DNA of 43,713 bases, taken from IMG/VR virus record IMGVR_UViG_3300044712_000819, positions 1 through 43,713 of that record; one strand, 5' to 3'. Made by a program: the position numbers and the translations under genes. Below the pieces are notes generated by a model. It did no database searches and had not been told where the DNA came from. It was given only the letters and a program-made list of their open reading frames with translations. The number at the start of each line of letters is the position of its first letter. The stretch's first letter is position 1. This DNA is from a virus. Shown piece after piece: positions 7,222 through 39,800 of this stretch.

Positions 7222-8184
7222 TTATTCACTTTTATTTAAATTATTTATGCGAATATTGATCTGATTAAGTTTTTCTTTCCTATCAAATCTTATTTTTTCT
7301 CTGTTAATATAAAAATTTCTAATTTCTTCATTCTTACGAGACATAAATTCCCTAAAAGATGTGATATCGTTGTTTTGTTGACAATATTTATTATATGCCA
7401 AATCTTTAAGTTTTTTATCTTTATAAAACCTATCAATTTGAATACCTTTAATTTTTACATAATTGATATCATCAAATAATATGAATCGTTTTTTTGCAAT
7501 AAAATATATTATTTTATTTGAATCTTGATCTATATTGTATAAATTATCAATCATATTATATATCAAATCAACTTTGAATGCACTGTGAACAAATATTGTA
7601 TCAGTATCAATATAAAGTATATTTTCTTTGTTATCTAATTCTAAAATTTTGTTCATTAAAACGTATGAAAAAGTTGATGTTATATTGCTTATATCACTTC
7701 CAATTTTATATAATTGTCCAAATTTATAATTTATAATAATTTTCAATAATTTATATTCATCTATATTTAAATTATTTTTCAAAACAACAACATTATCCAC
7801 TAAATATGAATATGAATCTAAATTATAACCAAACAAATTTTTAATTATATTTTTTTGGTATAAAAATTTCATTGTATAGGGATATAAATTACGAAACGAT
7901 AGAATATTTATATTATCTACCAATATGTTTTCTTTATTTAAAAACACAAACCCACCTTTTGATAATTGTGTACTAGCTGAATAAATTGTATCTATTAATA
8001 TCGACTGTTTTTCTGTTATCGGTGTCAATTTTTTTAAATTATCATTACAGTTATCGTAAATTAGTTGTAATTCATCATAATACTTAATAACATAGTTGTA
8101 AGTTTTTTCAGATTCGATAATTTCTTTATCTTTAATGTAAGTTTTTTTAAGATATTCGATAATATCTTCTTGTAGTTTATTCAT
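7222..8184 (-). CDS. Family B DNA polymerase palm-like protein, probably inactive
   Basis: A 320-residue protein whose middle carries the polymerase B motifs in order: a GG element (residues 77-78), motif A-like LSFRNLYPYTM (95-105), motif B-like KLLKIIINYKFG (145-156), motif C YIDTDTIFV (191-199), then KKRF (231-234) and KIKG (244-247). In active enzymes motif A is D-x-x-SLYP; here the catalytic aspartate is Ser96. There is no room for an exonuclease domain and the fingers are very short (about 40 residues between A and B, versus about 150 in RB69). YPYTM and the GG element recall the protein-primed branch. I infer a palm-only, catalytically dead relative with a binding or structural role. 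The C-terminal 80 residues are a basic helical tail. Confidence 0.7.
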   Translation of the reverse strand: MNKLQEDIIEYLKKTYIKDKEIIESEKTYNYVIKYYDELQLIYDNCNDNLKKLTPITEKQSILIDTIYSASTQLSKGGFVFLNKENILVDNINILSFRNLYPYTMKFLYQKNIIKNLFGYNLDSYSYLVDNVVVLKNNLNIDEYKLLKIIINYKFGQLYKIGSDISNITSTFSYVLMNKILELDNKENILYIDTDTIFVHSAFKVDLIYNMIDNLYNIDQDSNKIIYFIAKKRFILFDDINYVKIKGIQIDRFYKDKKLKDLAYNKYCQQNNDITSFREFMSRKNEEIRNFYINREKIRFDRKEKLNQINIRINNLNKSE

Positions 8185-9962: not shown

Positions 9963-10004
9963 TTTTTCGTAATTTTAATAGAAATATAAGAAAATCCATA
10001 ATTT

Positions 10005-10020
10005 ATTTTTTATATATAAG
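10005..10020 (+). promoter_or_regulatory. TATATATA-type promoter before homing endonuclease
   Basis: TTTTTTATATATAAGA followed by AATAAAAATTAAATTATGG. The whole leader is nearly identical to the one before the unrelated endonuclease gene at 32709 (promoter 32681-32700), which points to a shared expression cassette. Confidence 0.6.
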
Positions 10021-10035
10021 AATAAAAATTAAATT

Positions 10036-10965
10036 ATGGATTTAATATTATTAGAAAAAATAAAAGAATTAAGATGTGAAAATAATGGTATAACGAAAAT
10101 CGCTAGACTATTAAATAAAAGTACAGATACAATTAGAAAATATTTAGTATATTTGGGTGAATTGTCTGAAATTCCAAAAAATGTTGGGGGTAGAAAGAGA
10201 AAATATAATGTTGATGATAATTTTTTTGAAAAAATAGACAATGAATATAATGCATATATTTTAGGTTTTATATATGCCGATGGCTGTATATTAGAAAGAA
10301 ATCAATTTAGTATCACAGTAAAACGAGATGATGAATATATATTGGAAAAAATAAACATTTGTATGAAATCTAATTTTCCAATCGTTAGATATTCATCTAA
10401 ATATGATGAAAATCATAAAGCTACAGATAAAAGTTCATTGAGGATAACTAGTAAAAAAATTATAGAAGATTTATATAAACTTGGATGTACTAAAAGAAAA
10501 TCTGACACATTAACATTTCCAAAAATAGATAAGGTGTATATTAGAGATTTTATGAGGGGATATTTTGATGGTGATGGTACTGTATTTTTGGTTCAAGAAG
10601 ATGATATTAGATTTGGAATAATTTCGACAAAAGAATTTTGTGATAGTTTTTTGAAATTATTACCATATAATGGAAAAACTGAAATTCATAAAGAATATAG
10701 ATGTGAAAAAAATGTTTATTATATATCATTAGGTGGTAAATATGTGATTAAAAAAATATATGATTTTTTATATGATAATTCAAATATATATTTAACTAGA
10801 AAGTATGATATATTTGAAAATTATTATAAAAATTGCAAATTTTATGTCGGTAAATTATGTCCAAATTGTGGTGAAACTGGTGGATATAAACATGGCAAAT
10901 ATAAAAATAAACAAAAACTTACTTGTAAATATTGTAATAATCATTTTTATGATGAAATTATTTAA
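10036..10965 (+). CDS. LAGLIDADG homing endonuclease (free-standing)
   Basis: A 309-residue protein. Residues 1-45 are a helix-turn-helix (ITKIARLLNKSTDTIRKYL). Two LAGLIDADG helices follow: YILGFIYADGCI near residue 75 and FMRGYFDGDGTV near residue 175, each with the metal-binding aspartate at its end, so it can act as a monomer. The C-terminus carries a zinc ribbon (CPNCGETGG and CKYCNNHF), probably for DNA binding. The enzyme cuts a specific long site to spread its own gene. Its end overlaps the next, oppositely oriented gene by four bases, consistent with insertion between existing genes. Confidence 0.9.
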   Translation: MDLILLEKIKELRCENNGITKIARLLNKSTDTIRKYLVYLGELSEIPKNVGGRKRKYNVDDNFFEKIDNEYNAYILGFIYADGCILERNQFSITVKRDDEYILEKINICMKSNFPIVRYSSKYDENHKATDKSSLRITSKKIIEDLYKLGCTKRKSDTLTFPKIDKVYIRDFMRGYFDGDGTVFLVQEDDIRFGIISTKEFCDSFLKLLPYNGKTEIHKEYRCEKNVYYISLGGKYVIKKIYDFLYDNSNIYLTRKYDIFENYYKNCKFYVGKLCPNCGETGGYKHGKYKNKQKLTCKYCNNHFYDEII

Positions 10966-21570: not shown

Positions 21571-22653
21571 ATGATAAAAACTGATAAAATAAATATCACA
21601 ATTAACACGAATAAAGTAAAAAAGATATACGAAGAATTAGGATATATTATACCAAAAGAATATATAAACAGCGTTATAGAAATAGATATAAAAGATTTGA
21701 ATAAAACAAGTCATAAAACAGTGGAATGTGAATGTGATATATGTGGAAGAATCAATAAAACTACATATTTATCATATAATAATAGTATTAATAAGCATGG
21801 GTATTATTCGTGTTCAGGAAAATGTTCTATGTCAAAAATAAAAAATATTAAAAAACAAAATTATGGTGATGAAAATTATAATAATGTTGAAAAAAATAAA
21901 AACACATGTTTAAAAAAATATGGGGTTGAAAATGTTTTTCAATTAAATGATGTTAAAAATAAGATAATAAAAACGAATTTAGAAAAATTGGGGGTTGGAA
22001 ATCCATCACAGTCAGAAGATATTAAAAATAAAAAAATTAAAAAATGTTTAAGTAATTATAATACTAAATATCCGGCACAGAACAATGATATAATTGAAAA
22101 AATGAAAAATACCAATTTAAATAGATATTTGGTGGAAAATTACACACAAACAAATGAATATAAAGAAAAATCAAAACAAACCAATATAGAAAGATATGGG
22201 GTAGATAATCCCGCAAAAAATTATAAAGTAAAAGAAAAATCGAAACAAACTTGCATAGAAAGATATGGTGTGGAATATCCATCACAAAATATAGATATTT
22301 TTAATAAACAGCAAAAATCAGCTTTAAGAATTATAAAATTTAGAGATACCGATTTGAATTATCAAGGAACATATGAATTAGATTTTTTAAATGAATATTA
22401 TGATATAATTAAAATAAGTAAAAAGCATAAATCAATAAAATATTTTTTCGAAAATAAAAACAGAATATATTATCCAGATTTTTACTATGAACCATTAAAT
22501 TTGATTATCGAAGTAAAAAGTGATTATACATTTAATAAAGAATTAAATAAAAATTTAGCAAAACGGAAATCGTGTTTAGATAATGGGTATAATTTTATTT
22601 TTATAATAAACAAAAATTATAATGATTTTCAAAAATTATTAGATAATATTTAA
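21571..22653 (+). CDS. Vsr-like homing endonuclease with tandem YGV repeats
   Basis: A 360-residue protein. The N-terminal part has a zinc ribbon-like element (CECDICGR and CSGKCS). Residues about 105-255 are six degenerate repeats of about 23 residues with the pattern T-x-x-x-x-Y-G-V-x-N-P-x-Q-x-x-x-I-x-x-K, which probably bind DNA. The C-terminal nuclease-like core has IYYPDFYYEPLNLIIEVKS (D...E-V-K), as in the Vsr/EDxHD family of phage homing endonucleases. It is related in domain order to the protein at 32709-33938. Its 3' end overlaps the convergent kinase gene by 15 bases. Confidence 0.8.
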   Translation: MIKTDKINITINTNKVKKIYEELGYIIPKEYINSVIEIDIKDLNKTSHKTVECECDICGRINKTTYLSYNNSINKHGYYSCSGKCSMSKIKNIKKQNYGDENYNNVEKNKNTCLKKYGVENVFQLNDVKNKIIKTNLEKLGVGNPSQSEDIKNKKIKKCLSNYNTKYPAQNNDIIEKMKNTNLNRYLVENYTQTNEYKEKSKQTNIERYGVDNPAKNYKVKEKSKQTCIERYGVEYPSQNIDIFNKQQKSALRIIKFRDTDLNYQGTYELDFLNEYYDIIKISKKHKSIKYFFENKNRIYYPDFYYEPLNLIIEVKSDYTFNKELNKNLAKRKSCLDNGYNFIFIINKNYNDFQKLLDNI

Positions 22654-31520: not shown

Positions 31521-31553
31521 TTAAAACTTTTTATTATGTTTTATGTATAATAA
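31521..31553 (+). repeat. 33-bp direct repeat, copy 1 (promoter-like)
   Basis: 32 of 33 bases match the copy at 31617-31649. The 3' half, TTTATGTATAATAA, resembles an extended -10 element (TG-TATAAT). Start-to-start distance is 96 bp. Confidence 0.7.
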
Positions 31554-31616: not shown

Positions 31617-31649
31617 TTAAAACTTTTTATTATGATTTATGTATAATAA
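31617..31649 (+). promoter_or_regulatory. 33-bp direct repeat, copy 2, likely uvsX promoter
   Basis: Second copy of the 33-bp element (one mismatch), ending 23 bases before the uvsX start. Its position suggests a promoter or activator site, probably for middle expression, with copy 1 a tandem duplicate. Confidence 0.55.
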
Positions 31650-31672: not shown

Positions 31673-32641
31673 ATGGCAAAAATTGCAAAAACTGCAAAAA
31701 CTTCTCAAAAAAAATCTAATGATTTTAACTTTTCAAGTTTATCGAGTCTTATAGACAATATGGACAAAAAAGATATAATTTCAGTTGAAGATTTTAATAA
31801 AGAAAAGAATTTTATATCAACAGGTATTCATATTGTTGATGGACTTTTATCAAAAAGTATTTTAAAAGGTGGTATTCCAGCTAACAAAATTACTCTTATT
31901 GCTGGACCAAAACAAACAGGTAAATCATTTATATCCTTAAATATAGCAAGAAATGCTCAAAATATGGGATATAATGTTGTTTGGATTGACACTGAATATA
32001 GTATTGAAAAATCAGATTTTGATATGTATGGTATTGATACATCAAATTCTGATACATTTATGTTAATACGTACTAACATAGTTGAAAAAATCAAAATTTT
32101 CTTGATGTCATTTTTAGATGCTTTACAAAAGTTAAAAGATACTGGTGTTGATGTATCAAAAACAATTGTGATATTAGATTCAATTGGTATGTTATCATCA
32201 GAAAAAGAAAAGGAAGATACCCTTAAACAAACAGTGAAACAGGATATGACACGTGCAAAACAGATAAAATCATTGATGAGACTTATTACTAATGATTTGG
32301 GTAGATTAAATATACCATTGGTTGCAACAAATCATATTTATTTATGTTTAGCTGGTGGACATAAAATTTTAAAATCTGATGGTACATCTGAATTAATTGA
32401 AAATTTAAAAACTGGTGATATTGTTAAAACATTAGGTGGTGATAAACCTGTACTAAAAACAGTAAAATATCCAAATAGTCCAATTATTCAAATAACATTA
32501 GATAATGGTGAAATAATAAAATGTACACCTAAACATAGATTTTTAGTTAAACCTAATTGGGTTGCTGATGAAAATAATGAATGTTGGAAAATAGCAGAAG
32601 AATTAACTGAAAATGATATAATTTTAGCTGTTAGTGAATAG
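31673..32641 (+). CDS. uvsX: UvsX recombinase N-terminal part fused to split-intein N-half
   Basis: A 322-residue protein. Residues 1-224 are the N-terminal part of a UvsX/RecA strand-exchange ATPase: Walker A AGPKQTGKS (G78-S85), the VVWIDTEYS strand, Walker B TIVILDSIG, and VATNHIYL, which corresponds to the conserved NH-x-Y of T4 UvsX. At residue 225 (base 32345) the sequence switches to an intein N-fragment of 98 residues: CLAGGHKILKSDGTSELI (block A, nucleophile Cys1) and IIKCTPKHRFLV (block B, T-x-x-H). It then stops. The rest of the recombinase and intein is at 33956-34663. Trans-splicing would rejoin NHIYL to TQDMF. Confidence 0.93.
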   Translation: MAKIAKTAKTSQKKSNDFNFSSLSSLIDNMDKKDIISVEDFNKEKNFISTGIHIVDGLLSKSILKGGIPANKITLIAGPKQTGKSFISLNIARNAQNMGYNVVWIDTEYSIEKSDFDMYGIDTSNSDTFMLIRTNIVEKIKIFLMSFLDALQKLKDTGVDVSKTIVILDSIGMLSSEKEKEDTLKQTVKQDMTRAKQIKSLMRLITNDLGRLNIPLVATNHIYLCLAGGHKILKSDGTSELIENLKTGDIVKTLGGDKPVLKTVKYPNSPIIQITLDNGEIIKCTPKHRFLVKPNWVADENNECWKIAEELTENDIILAVSE

Positions 32642-32680
32642 TCTAATATATATGATTAGTGGAAATAAAATGGATTTTTA

Positions 32681-32700
32681 TTTTTATATATAAAATAAAA
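32681..32700 (+). promoter_or_regulatory. TATATATA-type promoter inside the fractured uvsX
   Basis: TTTTTATATATAAAATAAAA followed by ATTAAATTATGG: its own promoter for the endonuclease between the uvsX halves. Nearly the same leader precedes the LAGLIDADG gene at 10036. Confidence 0.6.
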
Positions 32701-32708
32701 ATTAAATT

Positions 32709-33938
32709 ATGGAAATTGAAAATATTATTAAGAATAGTAAAAATTTATCGGGTGTTATGAAAATGATTAATAATAATCCAAATTTACTAAATAGAATAAA
32801 TGATTTAACAAATTATTTAGATGATACTGTTTCTATTTATGAAAGATTATTTAATATTAAATATAATTTGGATCATATTTTAATATGTCCTATATGCAAA
32901 CATAATAAATTGGAATGGAACATGAAATATAAAAAATATAAGAAAACTTGTAATTGTAAATCTTGTAAATTGGAATATTTGATGTTAAACAGAGATTTAG
33001 AAAAAGAAATGAACAGAAGGAAAAAAATAAGTGATGTTCAAAAAAATAAATCAGATGAAGAAAAGAAAATGATACGAGATAAAATTGTAAAAACAAATTT
33101 GGAAAAATATGGTGTTGATAGTTTTGCTAAATCTGATTTATTTAAAGATAATATGAAAAAGAATAAAGGTTATGTTTCACCATTCGAATTAAATGAAACA
33201 CATAAAAAATCAAAAAAAACATTAATGAAAAAATATGGTGTTGATCACAATTTTAAGATTGATGCTGTTAAAAATAATAAAAAGAATACGTTTTTGATTA
33301 AATATGGTGTTGATGTTCCAACAAAATGTGATTCTATAAAAAATAAAATTATAGATACAAATAATATTAAATATGGTGGTAATTCACCAATGAATAATAT
33401 TGATATAGTACATAAAGCTAAAGAAACATATAAAATAAATTATATTGATAATGATGATAATAAAAAATCTTTATTATTAAAACGTGAAAACACAATGTTA
33501 GAAAAATATGGTGTTAAATATTGGATGCAAAATTGTGATAATGCTGATAATATGACTAAAAAAACATCATATAAAAAATATATTTTAAATAACAAAGAAT
33601 ATTCATTACAAGGATATGAAGATTTTGCATTATTTAATATTTTATTAAAAAAATATAATATTAATGATATAAAAATATCCAACAGTGAAATAACAGCAAA
33701 TATTGGTAATATCTATTATACATATAACAATAAAAAACATCGTTATTATCCTGATTTTTTTATTTGTAGCAAAAATAAGATTTATGAAGTAAAATCCAAT
33801 TATACATATAATTGTGATTTAGAAAAAAATAAATTGAAAGAACAAGCATGTTTAAATGCAGGAATAAATTTTGAATTTATCATAATTAATAAACAAACAT
33901 ATAAAGATTGGATAAATATAAATATAAATATAAAATAA
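32709..33938 (+). CDS. Vsr-like homing endonuclease between the uvsX halves
   Basis: A 409-residue protein. The N-terminal part holds a cysteine cluster (CPICKHNK, CNCKSCKLEY). The middle has tandem repeats of the form T-x-x-x-K-Y-G-V-D (about residues 135-285), like the protein at 21571-22653. The C-terminal nuclease core has HRYYPDFFICSKNKIYEVKS (D...E-V-K), consistent with the Vsr-like/EDxHD homing endonucleases that accompany split inteins in fractured phage genes. It starts 67 bases after the N-half stop and ends 17 bases before the C-half start. It presumably cuts intein-less uvsX. Confidence 0.83.
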   Translation: MEIENIIKNSKNLSGVMKMINNNPNLLNRINDLTNYLDDTVSIYERLFNIKYNLDHILICPICKHNKLEWNMKYKKYKKTCNCKSCKLEYLMLNRDLEKEMNRRKKISDVQKNKSDEEKKMIRDKIVKTNLEKYGVDSFAKSDLFKDNMKKNKGYVSPFELNETHKKSKKTLMKKYGVDHNFKIDAVKNNKKNTFLIKYGVDVPTKCDSIKNKIIDTNNIKYGGNSPMNNIDIVHKAKETYKINYIDNDDNKKSLLLKRENTMLEKYGVKYWMQNCDNADNMTKKTSYKKYILNNKEYSLQGYEDFALFNILLKKYNINDIKISNSEITANIGNIYYTYNNKKHRYYPDFFICSKNKIYEVKSNYTYNCDLEKNKLKEQACLNAGINFEFIIINKQTYKDWINININIK

Positions 33939-33955
33939 AAAATAATAAAAAATAT

Positions 33956-34663
33956 ATGAAATTTAAAGAATTAAAAATTAAAAAAGTTGAATATTTAGAA
34001 GATTTAGAAACAACATATGATATTCAAATAGAAGATTCACATCATTATTTATTAGAAAGTGGAATAGTGTCACATAATACACAAGATATGTTTCCACAGA
34101 CAATTATGAGTGGTGGTGAAGGTTTATATTATGCTGCAAGTGTAATATTATTTTTAAGTGATTCAAAATTAAAAACAGGTGAAGAAGATGAAATGGATCT
34201 AGGTCGATCAGGATCTATAATTACAGCAAAATGTAATAAAAATAGATTAGCAAAACCTAAGAAAGTCAAATTTGAAATAGATTATAGTAAAGGTATTAAT
34301 CCATTTAAGGGTTTGGATTTATTTTGTACTATTGAAAATTTTGATAAAATAGGTATTGCAAAAGTTAAGAAAGTTGTCGATAAAGATACTGGTGAAATAA
34401 CATATGCATCATATAATCGTTGGTATGTTAAACATTTGGATACACATTTAGCAGAAAAACAATTATTTAATCGAAAGGTTTTTACACCTGAAGTTTTAGC
34501 TAAAATGGAACCAATTATATATGATTATTTTAAATATCCGTCATATGATGAATATCTTAGAGAATTAGAAGAAATTGATGAAAAATTAAATGAAATAGAA
34601 GAAAAAGATATGTTAACATCAGAAGAATTTGATCTCGATGATGATGAAAATTTATTTAATTAA
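33956..34663 (+). CDS. uvsX: Split-intein C-half fused to UvsX C-terminal part
   Basis: A 235-residue protein. Residues 1-41 are the intein C-fragment: MKFKELKIKKVEYLEDLE, then TTYDIQIEDSHHYLLESGIV and the terminal S-H-N (block F and G). The first extein residue is Thr42 (base 34079), followed by TQDMFPQTIMSGGEGLYYAA, which corresponds to TQEMF of T4 UvsX. The remaining 194 residues give the C-terminal recombinase part with an acidic tail (SEEFDLDDDENLFN), as in T4 UvsX. Spliced UvsX would be about 418 residues (T4: 391). The ATG at 33956 is the natural start; an upstream alternative would overlap the endonuclease. Confidence 0.92.
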   Translation: MKFKELKIKKVEYLEDLETTYDIQIEDSHHYLLESGIVSHNTQDMFPQTIMSGGEGLYYAASVILFLSDSKLKTGEEDEMDLGRSGSIITAKCNKNRLAKPKKVKFEIDYSKGINPFKGLDLFCTIENFDKIGIAKVKKVVDKDTGEITYASYNRWYVKHLDTHLAEKQLFNRKVFTPEVLAKMEPIIYDYFKYPSYDEYLRELEEIDEKLNEIEEKDMLTSEEFDLDDDENLFN

Positions 34664-35198: not shown

Positions 35199-36539
35199 AT
35201 GGCAGATATTACAAATACAAATCAAGAAAAACATTATTTTGTTCACATATTAGAAAATCCTGATCAATTTAGTAAGGTAGAACCATATTTTTTTAAGAAT
35301 TCTGATATAATGTTCATTTATACAGTAATTAGGGATGAATATATTAGAAGTGAATCACATACTGTTCCAAGTATTAATCAGATATATTCTATGGTTAAAC
35401 TTGCTGATCAAGAAAATAAAATAAATGACAAAGTTATAAAATTGCTTATTCAATCTGATAATAGTGATATCAGTTCTGAATGGTTATTACCAAGATTTAA
35501 AAGTTGGAAAATACAAAATCAACTTAAAGGTGATATGCTTAAAGGAATTGATATGGTTCGTGGGTTAGAAGAAATTGATTACACTAATGTAACAGAAGTT
35601 GCCCAAAAACTTAAAGCTATGTTTAATAATGTACTTTTGGTTGATGATGATGATAGTGATTTGGGTGATGATTTTGATGATCCGGAATCACACAAACAAC
35701 AAATTTCTAAAAATTGTATTCCCACAGGTTGGCCTTGTATTGATACAATTTTGGGTGGTGGTTGGAGTAAATCTACATTAAATGTAATTATGGGTGAAAC
35801 CAATGTAGGTAAATCAATGTGGTTACATAATGTTGCAGTCAATGCTGCAAATGCTGGCACTAATGTTTTGATTATTACTTTGGAAATGGCAAATAGAAAG
35901 GTTTTTAAACGATTGGGTTGTATGAGACTTAAAATCAATGTTGATGAATATGATGAAAAGTCAAAAGACCCAATGTTTATGAAACAAAGATTAAATAATT
36001 TGAAATCTCAAGTTACGGGTGGTAGTTTGTTTGATGCTCAACCAGGCAAATTATTTGTTAAAAAGTATAATACTAGTGACTGTACCGTAACAGATATTGA
36101 TAATTATGTTAAAAAATTTGAAGAAACTAAAAGGCTTAAAGTAGGTATGGTAGTTGTCGATTACATAAATATTATGTCAATTGAAAAAGGTTTTGATGTT
36201 ACCAATATGTTATATTTAAAAGGTAAACATTTAGCTGAAGGGTTGAGAAGAATTGGTGATAAATATGAATGTGCGATTGTTACTGCCACACAAACTGATA
36301 AAGCGGTTTGGGGTGCATCTGATATTAAATTGGCTGATATTCCTGAAAGTAAAGCAATTGCTGATACTGCTGACTCAGTTTGGGGTATTATTCGTAATCC
36401 AGAAATGAAACGTAATAATATTTATAGATTAAAAATATTAAAGTTAAGGGATGGTGAACATCATGAAGAACAAGTTCGATTTGATTTTAATACAAAATTT
36501 TTAACTATGGATAATGATACATTGGTTGGAGTAAAATAA
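35199..36539 (+). CDS. Replicative DNA helicase (gp41/DnaB family)
   Basis: A 446-residue hexameric helicase that unwinds DNA at the fork. The C-terminal RecA-like core shows TGWPCIDTILGGGWSKSTL, Walker A GETNVGKS (G199-S206), LIITLEMANRKVFKRLGCM (motif H1a region), Walker B MVVVDYINIM and IVTATQTDK (H3 region), then SKAIADTADSVWGI and an Arg-rich end. The N-terminal 150 residues are the helical primase-binding/collar domain. Length is close to T4 gp41 (475). No intein is present, although gp41 is a known split-intein host. Confidence 0.92.
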   Translation: MADITNTNQEKHYFVHILENPDQFSKVEPYFFKNSDIMFIYTVIRDEYIRSESHTVPSINQIYSMVKLADQENKINDKVIKLLIQSDNSDISSEWLLPRFKSWKIQNQLKGDMLKGIDMVRGLEEIDYTNVTEVAQKLKAMFNNVLLVDDDDSDLGDDFDDPESHKQQISKNCIPTGWPCIDTILGGGWSKSTLNVIMGETNVGKSMWLHNVAVNAANAGTNVLIITLEMANRKVFKRLGCMRLKINVDEYDEKSKDPMFMKQRLNNLKSQVTGGSLFDAQPGKLFVKKYNTSDCTVTDIDNYVKKFEETKRLKVGMVVVDYINIMSIEKGFDVTNMLYLKGKHLAEGLRRIGDKYECAIVTATQTDKAVWGASDIKLADIPESKAIADTADSVWGIIRNPEMKRNNIYRLKILKLRDGEHHEEQVRFDFNTKFLTMDNDTLVGVK

Positions 36540-37247: not shown

Positions 37248-39800
37248 ATGGAATATAAAAGAGAAGAAGCATTTAATGCATCATTGGAATATTTTAAAAA
37301 TGATACTTTAGCCGCAGATGTTTTCGTAAATAAATATGCATTAAAAGAAACAAAAAATGGTGAAACAGTTTATTACGAAAAAACACCAGATGATATGCAT
37401 AAGAGGATTGCAAAAGAATTACATAGAATAGAACGTAATTATGAAAATCCATTATCAGAAGAAGTTATATTTGAAACTTTAAAAGAATTTAAATATATTA
37501 TACCTGGTGGTTCACCTATGTCTGGTATTGGTAATGATGCACAAGTTGTATCATTATCAAATTGTTTTGTTATAGGAAATTCGTTTGATTCCTACGGTTC
37601 TATTTGTCAGGTGGATGAAGAACAAATTCAACTTATGAAACGTAGGGGTGGTGTTGGTCATGATTTATCGCATATTAGACCAACAGGTATGCCAGTAAAA
37701 AATTCCGCACTAACATCAACGGGACTAGTCCCATTTATGAGTAGATATTCAAATTCAACTAATGAAGTAGCACAAGGTGGTAGACGTGGTGCATTAATGC
37801 TAACATGTTCGGTAAAACATCCAGATTCAGAACAATTTATTGATGCAAAATTAGAACAAGGTAAAGTAACAGGTGCAAATATATCGGTCAAAGTAACAGA
37901 TGATTTTATGCAAGCTGCAATAAATTCACATATGTTCACTCAATTATATCCAATTGATTCATTGTCACCTTTAGTAACAAAACAAATAGATGCACATAAA
38001 TTGTGGAAAAAAATTATTCATAATGCTTGGAAATCTGCTGAACCTGGTGTTTTGTTTTGGGATACAATAATGACAGAATCTGTTCCAGATTGTTATCAAG
38101 ATTTCGGATTTACTACGGTTTCAACTAATCCATGTGGTGAAATAACACTTTGTCCTTATGATAGTTGCAGATTATTATCATTGAATCTTTATGGTTTTGT
38201 TGAAAATCCATTTACTTCTAATGCTTTTTTTAATTGGGATAAATTTGAAAAATATGTAATATATGCAGAAAGATTTATGGATGATATTGTTGATCTCGAA
38301 ATTGAAAAAATTCAAAAAATTTTAGAAAAAATTGAACTTGATCCGGAATCAGAAGAAACAAAGAGTACTGAAAGGGATGTTTGGATTAAGATTATGAATA
38401 TGACTGTTAATGGTCGTAGAACGGGGTTGGGTGTTACTGCTGAAGGTGATATGTTAGCAGCACTTGGGTTCAGATATGGAACTAAAGAAGCAACAGATTT
38501 TTCAACTGAAGTTCATAAAAAATTGGCTATTTCTGCGTATAAATCATCAGCAATTATGGCTAAAGAACGTGGGTCGTTTCCAATATATGAATATTCTAGA
38601 GAATTAAATAATCCATTTATTCAACGATTAAAAGATGCTGATCCAGAATTAACAGAAATGTTAAAATATGGTAGAAGAAATATTGCATTGCTTACAATTG
38701 CACCAACAGGTTCAGTATCTATCTTAACACAAACAACATCAGGCATTGAACCAGCATATCTTGTTTCATATAAACGAAGAAGAAAAATTAATCCAAATGA
38801 TAAAGCAGGTAGAATAGATTTTATTGATGCAGAAGGTGTAAAATGGGAAGAATATAATGTATTTCATCATAAATTTGAAACTTGGTTAGAAATTAATGGA
38901 TATGATGTTAATGAAATTAAAAGCTTAAAAGATATTGAATTGCAAAAAATTATTGAAATGTCACCGTACAACAAAGCAACATCAAACGATGTAGATTGGG
39001 TTGAAAAGGTTAGAATGCAAGGAAATATCCAAAAATTTGTTGATCATTCTATATCTGTTACAGTCAATTTACCAAGTAATGTTACTGAAGAAATTGTTTC
39101 TAAGGTGTATGAAATGGGTTGGAAAAGTGGATGTAAAGGTTTAACTGTGTATCGTGATGGATCACGACAAGGTGTTATTATGTCTAATGAAGGTACAACA
39201 CAGAATGTTGTTCAACAAGAAAATAATGCCAAAAAAAGACCAACTAAACTTGAATGTGAAGTTGTTAGATTTACAAACAATAAAGAAAAATGGATAGGAT
39301 TTTTGGGTCTTATGGTGGATGATAAAACTGGTGAAAAGTACCCATATGAATTATTTACAGGTTTAGTCGATGAATTTCCTGTTCCTTCATATGTTGAAAA
39401 GGGTGAAACAGTTAAATTTAAAGAAAAACCTAAAGAAGGTGAAGAAATTCAAAGTAGATACGATTTTGTGTATAAAGATAAAGATGGTTATACTGTTATT
39501 ATGCAAGGACTTAATCGGGCATTTGATCGTGAATTTTGGAATATGAGTAAATTGATTTCAGCTTTATTAAGACATAGAGTTCACTTACCAAGTGTAATTA
39601 GTATTATTGATGGTTTACAATTAAATGATACAATGGCTTTTGGTACTTGGAAATCGGGTGTAAAACGAATTATCAAAAAATATATCAATTCAACAATAGT
39701 TAATGAATCTTGTCCTAATTGTGGTGCAACAGCACCAGATTTAATCTATGAAAATGGATGCAAGACGTGCAAGCAGTGTGGATGGTCAAAATGCGAATAA
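37248..39800 (+). CDS. nrdJ: Class II (B12-dependent) ribonucleotide reductase
   Basis: An 850-residue enzyme that makes deoxyribonucleotides using adenosylcobalamin. Visible marks: VSLSNCFVIG (redox Cys106), RRGGVGHDLSHIRPTG, NPCGEITL (thiyl-radical Cys and glutamate), DSCRLLSLNL (second redox Cys), NGRRTGLGVTAEGDMLAALG, and a C-terminal zinc ribbon CPNCGATAP...CKQCGWSKCE. The lack of a neighbouring NrdB and the single long chain fit class II. The gene has no intein. It needs no oxygen, but needs host or imported cobalamin. Its 3' end is followed by the long inverted repeat at 39815-39905. Confidence 0.92.
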   Translation: MEYKREEAFNASLEYFKNDTLAADVFVNKYALKETKNGETVYYEKTPDDMHKRIAKELHRIERNYENPLSEEVIFETLKEFKYIIPGGSPMSGIGNDAQVVSLSNCFVIGNSFDSYGSICQVDEEQIQLMKRRGGVGHDLSHIRPTGMPVKNSALTSTGLVPFMSRYSNSTNEVAQGGRRGALMLTCSVKHPDSEQFIDAKLEQGKVTGANISVKVTDDFMQAAINSHMFTQLYPIDSLSPLVTKQIDAHKLWKKIIHNAWKSAEPGVLFWDTIMTESVPDCYQDFGFTTVSTNPCGEITLCPYDSCRLLSLNLYGFVENPFTSNAFFNWDKFEKYVIYAERFMDDIVDLEIEKIQKILEKIELDPESEETKSTERDVWIKIMNMTVNGRRTGLGVTAEGDMLAALGFRYGTKEATDFSTEVHKKLAISAYKSSAIMAKERGSFPIYEYSRELNNPFIQRLKDADPELTEMLKYGRRNIALLTIAPTGSVSILTQTTSGIEPAYLVSYKRRRKINPNDKAGRIDFIDAEGVKWEEYNVFHHKFETWLEINGYDVNEIKSLKDIELQKIIEMSPYNKATSNDVDWVEKVRMQGNIQKFVDHSISVTVNLPSNVTEEIVSKVYEMGWKSGCKGLTVYRDGSRQGVIMSNEGTTQNVVQQENNAKKRPTKLECEVVRFTNNKEKWIGFLGLMVDDKTGEKYPYELFTGLVDEFPVPSYVEKGETVKFKEKPKEGEEIQSRYDFVYKDKDGYTVIMQGLNRAFDREFWNMSKLISALLRHRVHLPSVISIIDGLQLNDTMAFGTWKSGVKRIIKKYINSTIVNESCPNCGATAPDLIYENGCKTCKQCGWSKCE

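What the first reader, a model, noticed from the sequence alone, without database searches (positions are those of the whole stretch)
31673..34663. Fractured uvsX: split intein plus Vsr-like homing endonuclease
Seen: a recombinase frame stops after CLAGGHKIL...TPKH (intein N-half, 98 aa); 1.3 kb later another frame starts with an intein C-half (41 aa, ending SHN) and continues the recombinase with TQDMF. Joining residue 224 (NHIYL) to Thr42 restores the conserved UvsX block seen as NHTYETQEMF in T4. The gene in between has a PDF...EVKS nuclease core and its own promoter. Known: the same arrangement occurs in phage gp41, NrdJ and IMPDH genes from metagenomes with Vsr-like endonucleases. Inference: natural trans-splicing restores the recombinase; UvsX may be a new or rare host gene for such an intein.
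Basis: partly seen in the sequence, partly recalled or inferred. Interest (0 to 1): 0.9.

Follow-up and report, generated by a model that had tools for sequence, protein, structure and literature searches.

The report
Phage uvsX gene split by intein
In this giant-phage-like DNA the gene for the recombination enzyme UvsX is cut in two by a pair of self-splicing intein halves with a mobile nuclease gene between them, so the enzyme is probably rejoined after translation; the arrangement is known from other phage genes, but the position within UvsX and the nuclease partner appear new, and relatives show intact, fused, split and nuclease-less versions of the same site.

Summary
Confirmed. The window holds UvsX residues 1-224 fused to a 98-aa N-intein (31673-32641), a separate endonuclease gene (32709-33938), and a 41-aa C-intein fused to the last 194 UvsX residues (33956-34663). 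Both intein halves pass curated NCBIfam cut-offs, and the splicing residues looked for are present (Cys1, TPKH, His-Asn, Thr+1). Seven other public contigs (six distinct lineages) carry an intein at exactly this codon, so it is not an assembly error; close relatives have the empty site there. Trans-splicing is the best explanation but was not shown.

Corrections: the endonuclease is better called a PD-(D/E)XK protein of Pfam DUF7487 (TnsA-like core) than Vsr-like. UvsX is not a new host gene: T4-like phages (TG1, SEA1, Thanatos-1, PspYZU05) and Lak-B carry split UvsX inteins, but 13 alignment columns downstream, with GIY-YIG/NUMOD3-type genes in the T4-like ones.

New: this insertion site, the DUF7487 partner, and a series of states at one site: empty; contiguous mini-intein without nuclease (L003); split, nuclease in frame with the C-half (L151); fully fractured (window, L001, L024, L028); split with a nuclease remnant (L002). 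Presence is as patchy as random on the UvsX tree.

The parts
31673..32344 (+). UvsX N-extein, residues 1-224, ending NHIYL
   Evidence: phrog_97 UvsX-like 3.3e-48; RecA/UvsX PDB matches of the joined extein
32345..32638 (+). N-intein half, 98 aa, CLAGGHK...TPKH...AVSE (Cys1, TxxH); TAG stop at 32639-32641
   Evidence: TIGR01445 intein_Nterm 28.4 bits over cut-off 24.5; PF14890 4e-8, just under its cut-off
32656..32669 (+). leader box TTAGTGGAAATAAA before the nuclease gene
   Evidence: exact only in the L001, L024 and L028 cassettes among 144 loci; near-match TTAGTAGTAATAAA in L151
32685..32693 (+). TATATATAA promoter-like box, starting 24 nt before the nuclease start codon
   Evidence: ATATATAA within 45 nt upstream of 6 genes, 23-29 nt from the start; 0.7 expected
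32709..33938 (+). free-standing PD-(D/E)XK endonuclease gene (DUF7487), 409 aa
   Evidence: PF24308 1.1e-37; homologues in L001, L024, L028, L151 at 46-61% identity
32886..32966 (+). zinc-ribbon-like cysteines C60, C63, C81, C86 of the nuclease
   Evidence: invariant in five homologues; role inferred
33753..33794 (+). nuclease catalytic core PD349...E360-V-K362
   Evidence: invariant D349, E360, K362; model and TnsA match
33956..34078 (+). C-intein half, 41 aa, MKFKELK...GIVSHN
   Evidence: TIGR01443 intein_Cterm 24.3 bits over cut-off 15.6
34079..34663 (+). UvsX C-extein, 194 aa, starting TQDMF (Thr+1), with stop
   Evidence: phrog_97, phrog_18112; contiguous with the N-extein in empty-site relatives

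Best explanation
The uvsX gene of a large phage related to the 634-735 kb Mahaphage genomes is broken by a naturally split class-1-type intein at NHIYL|TQDMF, in the DNA-binding L2 region of the recombinase. The two precursor proteins are made separately, the 98-aa and 41-aa halves associate, and splicing (Cys1 attack, transfer to Thr+1, Asn cyclisation next to His) joins UvsX into a 418-residue enzyme. The gene between them encodes a PD-(D/E)XK homing endonuclease with its own promoter-like leader, which probably cuts uvsX genes lacking the element so that the intein and nuclease are copied in by recombination. Shown: gene order, intein motifs and families, conservation, empty sites, recurrence and patchiness. 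Inferred: trans-splicing, endonuclease activity and target, and homing.
For: Both intein halves exceed curated cut-offs. Cys1, TxxH, terminal His-Asn and Thr+1 are conserved in all seven aligned inteins. A contiguous 142-aa version of the same intein exists at the same codon in one open frame in L003. dN/dS is 0.03-0.38 for both intein halves and the nuclease, and 0.04-0.27 for the exteins, so none looks like a decaying pseudogene. Empty sites lie at the identical codon in many relatives. Intein presence needs 7 changes (at least 4) on a tree of 27 UvsX proteins, no fewer than with shuffled labels. Intein data reject the UvsX tree topology (AU p 0.02-0.03). L001 and L024 share the element at 84% of synonymous codons against 67% in their exteins (p 1e-7). 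No RNA intron family matches the stretch.
Against: No splicing, expression or cleavage was measured. The model of the L003 precursor failed, so the intein fold was not tested by structure. The halves show no clear opposite charge (IntN -3, IntC -4). The window is a 43.7 kb fragment, so a second intact uvsX elsewhere in the genome is not excluded. Synonymous sites are near saturation in most comparisons with the window, so they say little about recent transfer there. UvsX data do not reject the intein topology (AU p 0.16-0.17).
Confidence: 0.86

Rival explanations
1. The nuclease gene has simply broken uvsX: the halves are non-functional relics, and the phage uses a host recombinase or a second uvsX.
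For: The window is a fragment, so another copy cannot be ruled out; L002 shows nuclease decay.
Against: Exteins and intein halves are under purifying selection in several lineages and keep every splicing residue; even after nuclease loss in L002 both halves remain open.
Confidence: 0.06
2. The halves act as a two-subunit recombinase that assembles without splicing.
For: Split inteins bind each other tightly (established knowledge), so assembly alone is possible.
Against: The break lies in the L2 region, where 139 extra residues would sit at the DNA-binding site; the splicing residues are invariant and the same intein occurs uninterrupted in L003.
Confidence: 0.03
3. Splicing is real but the nuclease is not the mobility agent for this site: it is a stand-alone element that landed in the linker of an existing intein and targets another sequence.
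For: Most relatives of the nuclease found here do not lie next to recognisable intein halves, and L003 has the intein without it.
Against: The same nuclease lineage with the same leader box sits in this linker in L001, L024, L028 and (with a variant box) L151, and intein presence is patchy.
Confidence: 0.25
4. Assembly chimera joining two genomes.
For: The window is a metagenomic contig.
Against: The same order recurs in contigs from several unrelated samples.
Confidence: 0.01

Closest known systems
Fractured genes with split inteins (gp41-1, NrdJ-1, IMPDH-1; Dassa et al. 2009, cited in PMC7090010; the paper itself was not held, details from own knowledge)
   Same: A conserved phage replication or recombination gene broken by a split intein at the usual split point, a free-standing endonuclease gene between the halves, and control elements travelling with it.
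   Different: Host gene UvsX at this site; DUF7487 PD-(D/E)XK nuclease rather than the Vsr-like family; gp41-1 is the closest of these by sequence but weak (E 1e-4). Whether that paper's gene types include UvsX could not be checked.
Split UvsX inteins of T4-like phages (Yersinia TG1, Salmonella SEA1, Shewanella Thanatos-1, Pseudomonas PspYZU05) and Prevotella phage Lak-B
   Same: UvsX broken by a split intein, +1 Thr (Ser in Lak-B), with an ORF between the halves (a homing-endonuclease-type gene in the T4-like ones).
   Different: Insertion 13 alignment columns further downstream (after ..MSGG / ..QAMG); GIY-YIG/NUMOD3-type genes in the T4-like phages; N-intein only about 33-36% identical where tblastn aligned it.
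T4 SegA and intron endonucleases of T4 (review PMC2988022)
   Same: Mobile nuclease genes of phages; SegA also targets uvsX, and homing in T4 uses UvsX.
   Different: SegA is GIY-YIG and lies between genes, not inside an intein.
I-Bth0305I (EDxHD, Vsr-like) and I-Ssp6803I (PD-(D/E)XK) homing endonucleases (review PMC3943268)
   Same: Restriction-enzyme-like catalytic cores used for homing.
   Different: No detectable sequence similarity to either in the PDB search.
VidaL atypically split intein (PDB 6vgv)
   Same: Split intein; a related intein occurs in the neighbouring helicase gene of related contigs.
   Different: Different split point and host gene. From memory, unchecked: a Lake Vida split intein named for UvsX has been reported.

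Membership tests
Split intein (Hint, class-1 type) | N-terminal splicing region with Cys1 and TxxH | tested here: met
   TIGR01445 28.4 bits over 24.5; C1 and TPKH present and conserved
Split intein (Hint, class-1 type) | C-terminal splicing region ending His-Asn, followed by Cys/Ser/Thr | tested here: met
   TIGR01443 24.3 over 15.6; SHN|T
Split intein (Hint, class-1 type) | halves in separate reading frames | tested here: met
   1.3 kb and another gene between them
Split intein (Hint, class-1 type) | Hint fold of the assembled halves | tested here: inconclusive
   model of the contiguous homologue L003 had mean pLDDT 47, with a poor alignment
Split intein (Hint, class-1 type) | trans-splicing activity | not testable with these tools
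   needs expression
UvsX/RecA recombinase | UvsX family match over both exteins, contiguous in relatives | tested here: met
Fractured-gene arrangement | conserved gene broken by a split intein, with a free-standing endonuclease gene between the halves | tested here: met
Vsr-like / EDxHD homing endonuclease | Vsr-type catalytic domain | tested here: inconclusive
   no Vsr model up to E 0.1, no I-Bth0305I match; a PD...EXK core is present instead
DUF7487 PD-(D/E)XK nuclease | family model and catalytic residues | tested here: met
   PF24308 130.5 bits over 27; D349, E360, K362 invariant
Homing endonuclease | cleaves the allele lacking the element | not testable with these tools
   patchy presence and empty sites agree with it

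The most novel reading that the evidence does not exclude
One codon of one gene preserves a whole cycle of intein evolution: empty site, nuclease whose frame still runs into the C-half (L151), complete separation (window, L001, L024, L028), loss of the nuclease with the intein still split (L002), and return to a contiguous mini-intein (L003). If the branching holds, split inteins can fuse back to contiguous ones in nature, and splitting is a by-product of nuclease gain and loss rather than a dead end.
Probability: 0.35. Interest if true: 0.72.

Novelty: new variant of a known kind. Interest (0 to 1): 0.52.

Why it matters
It adds an apparently unreported intein insertion point in a core recombinase and links a family of unknown function (DUF7487) to split-intein mobility, here and, on the opposite strand, in a topoisomerase-like gene (L128). 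Because T4-type homing itself uses UvsX (PMC2988022), an element that breaks uvsX must let the enzyme be restored, which ties its spread to its own splicing. The set of states at one site makes the question of how split inteins arise and revert directly testable, and offers several candidate natural split inteins with Thr+1 for protein ligation.

Tried and rejected
The nuclease model is confident only for about the first 90 residues and the catalytic core; VIA-align gave no match at Z 5 or more, and I-Bth0305I and Vsr were not among the rows shown. A hairpin sequestering the uvsX-nuclease start codon was considered: leader folding is not beyond shuffled sequence in the four loci (z -0.4 to -1.1). 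An RNA intron was excluded as far as Rfam goes. Charge complementarity of the halves was not seen. A scan of cellular genomes for the nuclease lineage found no relative. Whether L003 is a re-fused split intein: it groups inside the split forms (support 86/97), but a tree holding all split forms together is not rejected (AU p 0.12). The library had no paper found to describe a UvsX intein.

Full report
What is there. The N-half ORF (31673-32641) reads UvsX residues 1-224 followed by a 98-aa N-intein and a TAG stop; the C-half (ATG 33956 to 34663) reads a 41-aa C-intein and UvsX residues 225-418. Between them lies a 409-aa ORF (32709-33938) on the same strand. NCBIfam's intein_Nterm and intein_Cterm models match the two halves above their curated cut-offs at exactly these places, and UvsX families match both exteins. 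Joined for the search, the intein matches solved inteins weakly (Pho RadA E 9e-5, gp41-1 E 1e-4), as a divergent intein would.

Recurrence and empty sites. Scans of viral contigs brought an intein of the same family at the same codon in L001, L002, L003, L024, L028, L151 and L155 (L153 is the L151 lineage cut at a contig edge). Many relatives have uvsX uninterrupted with the same junction residues, for example ...NHVYL|TQDMF... in L012, 87% and 82% identical to the window's two exteins. An assembly error is therefore excluded. The closest UvsX in named records are the 735, 636, 634 and 642 kb uncultured phage genomes (50-61% identity), whose sizes match the four largest genomes of the Mahaphage clade, predicted to infect Bacteroidetes (PMC7162821); the window is probably a fragment of a large phage of that kind.

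States of the site. L003 carries a contiguous 142-aa mini-intein in one ORF with uvsX and no nuclease. L151 has a separate N-half, but its nuclease frame runs without a stop into the C-intein and C-extein (647 aa, with an internal ATG at the expected C-half start). The window, L001, L024 and L028 have three separate genes. L002 is still split but keeps only about 50 residues of the nuclease's 3' end without a start. On the intein tree L003 falls among split forms, suggesting re-fusion, but this is not statistically firm.

Selection and mobility. dN/dS is 0.03-0.38 in both intein halves and the nuclease. On a tree of 27 UvsX proteins the intein needs seven changes, at least four by well-supported branches, which is as scattered as shuffled labels. 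The intein data reject the extein topology (AU p 0.026 and 0.022), though the extein data do not reject the intein topology. Between L001 and L024 the element matches at 84% of synonymous codons against 67% in the exteins (p 1e-7), but for the window most comparisons are at saturation, so recent transfer into this phage is not shown.

The nuclease. Pfam DUF7487 (1e-37) and, weakly, TnsA-like (1e-5, just under its cut-off); four cysteines and a PD349...E360-V-K362 core are invariant in five homologues; the model's best Foldseek matches are TnsA chains (E 0.04). No Vsr or I-Bth0305I match was seen. Relatives at about 22-42% identity are common in viral contigs; apart from the uvsX cassettes, the one case seen next to intein halves is L128, where a topoisomerase-like gene is split at EGDSAGG and the nuclease lies on the opposite strand.

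Control elements. The nuclease leader carries TTAGTGGAAATAAA, exact only in the uvsX cassettes among the loci held at that point, and TATATATAA starting 24 nt before the start codon. ATATATAA lies 23-29 nt before six genes of the window against 0.7 expected within 45 nt, although the same upstream stretches also hold it four times on the other strand. This is modest support for a promoter.

Comparison. Split UvsX inteins already exist in public records of T4-like phages and Lak-B, largely without intein annotation, but 13 alignment columns downstream and, in the T4-like ones, with GIY-YIG/NUMOD3-type genes. The present site is in the L2 region: by the RecA alignment it falls in RecA's NQIRMKIGVMF stretch (the role of L2 is established knowledge, not tested here). 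The general arrangement is that of the fractured genes of Dassa et al. 2009, which could not be read here. I therefore rate it a new variant of a known kind.

Noticed in passing
window 9966-10965: A stand-alone LAGLIDADG endonuclease gene (PF14528 2e-10). Its leader folds into a strong RNA hairpin (-17.2 kcal/mol, z -4.0) that pairs AATCCAT with the start codon ATGGATT and has a TATATATAA box near the loop, reminiscent of translational control of T4 intron endonucleases.
   Followed up: partly
window 21571-22653: A second DUF7487 PD-(D/E)XK gene (2.7e-69), about 31% identical to the one in uvsX and not flanked by intein halves seen here.
   Followed up: no
L128:2683-6620: A topoisomerase-like gene split at EGDSAGG by an intein, with a DUF7487-type nuclease on the opposite strand between the halves.
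   Followed up: partly
L008:7718-8830, L015:6466-7545, L024:7663-8745, L003:5116-6210: In relatives the DnaB-like helicase gene next to uvsX carries a VidaL-like, apparently atypically split intein before the Ser of GETNVGK|S; the window's copy (35199-36539) is uninterrupted.
   Followed up: partly
L001:7778-10698, L015:8264-10582, L029:7656-10595: Ribonucleotide reductase genes of relatives carry one or two inteins, in L001 one of them split; the window's copy (37248-39800) has none.
   Followed up: no
window 31524-31553 and 31620-31649: Two near-identical promoter-like stretches (AAACTTTTTATTATG...TTTATGTATAATAA) 96 nt apart upstream of uvsX.
   Followed up: no
L024:3322-3700: An extra ORF of roughly 120 aa between the N-half and the nuclease leader, absent from the other cassettes.
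   Followed up: no
L056 (Prevotella phage Lak-B5): UvsX in Lak-B phages is split by an intein at the T4-like site with about 1.4 kb between the halves; the GenBank record has no annotation.
   Followed up: partly
window 7222-8184: A 320-aa protein with YIDTDTIFVHS, resembling motif C of B-family DNA polymerases by eye; no Pfam or PHROG support.
   Followed up: no
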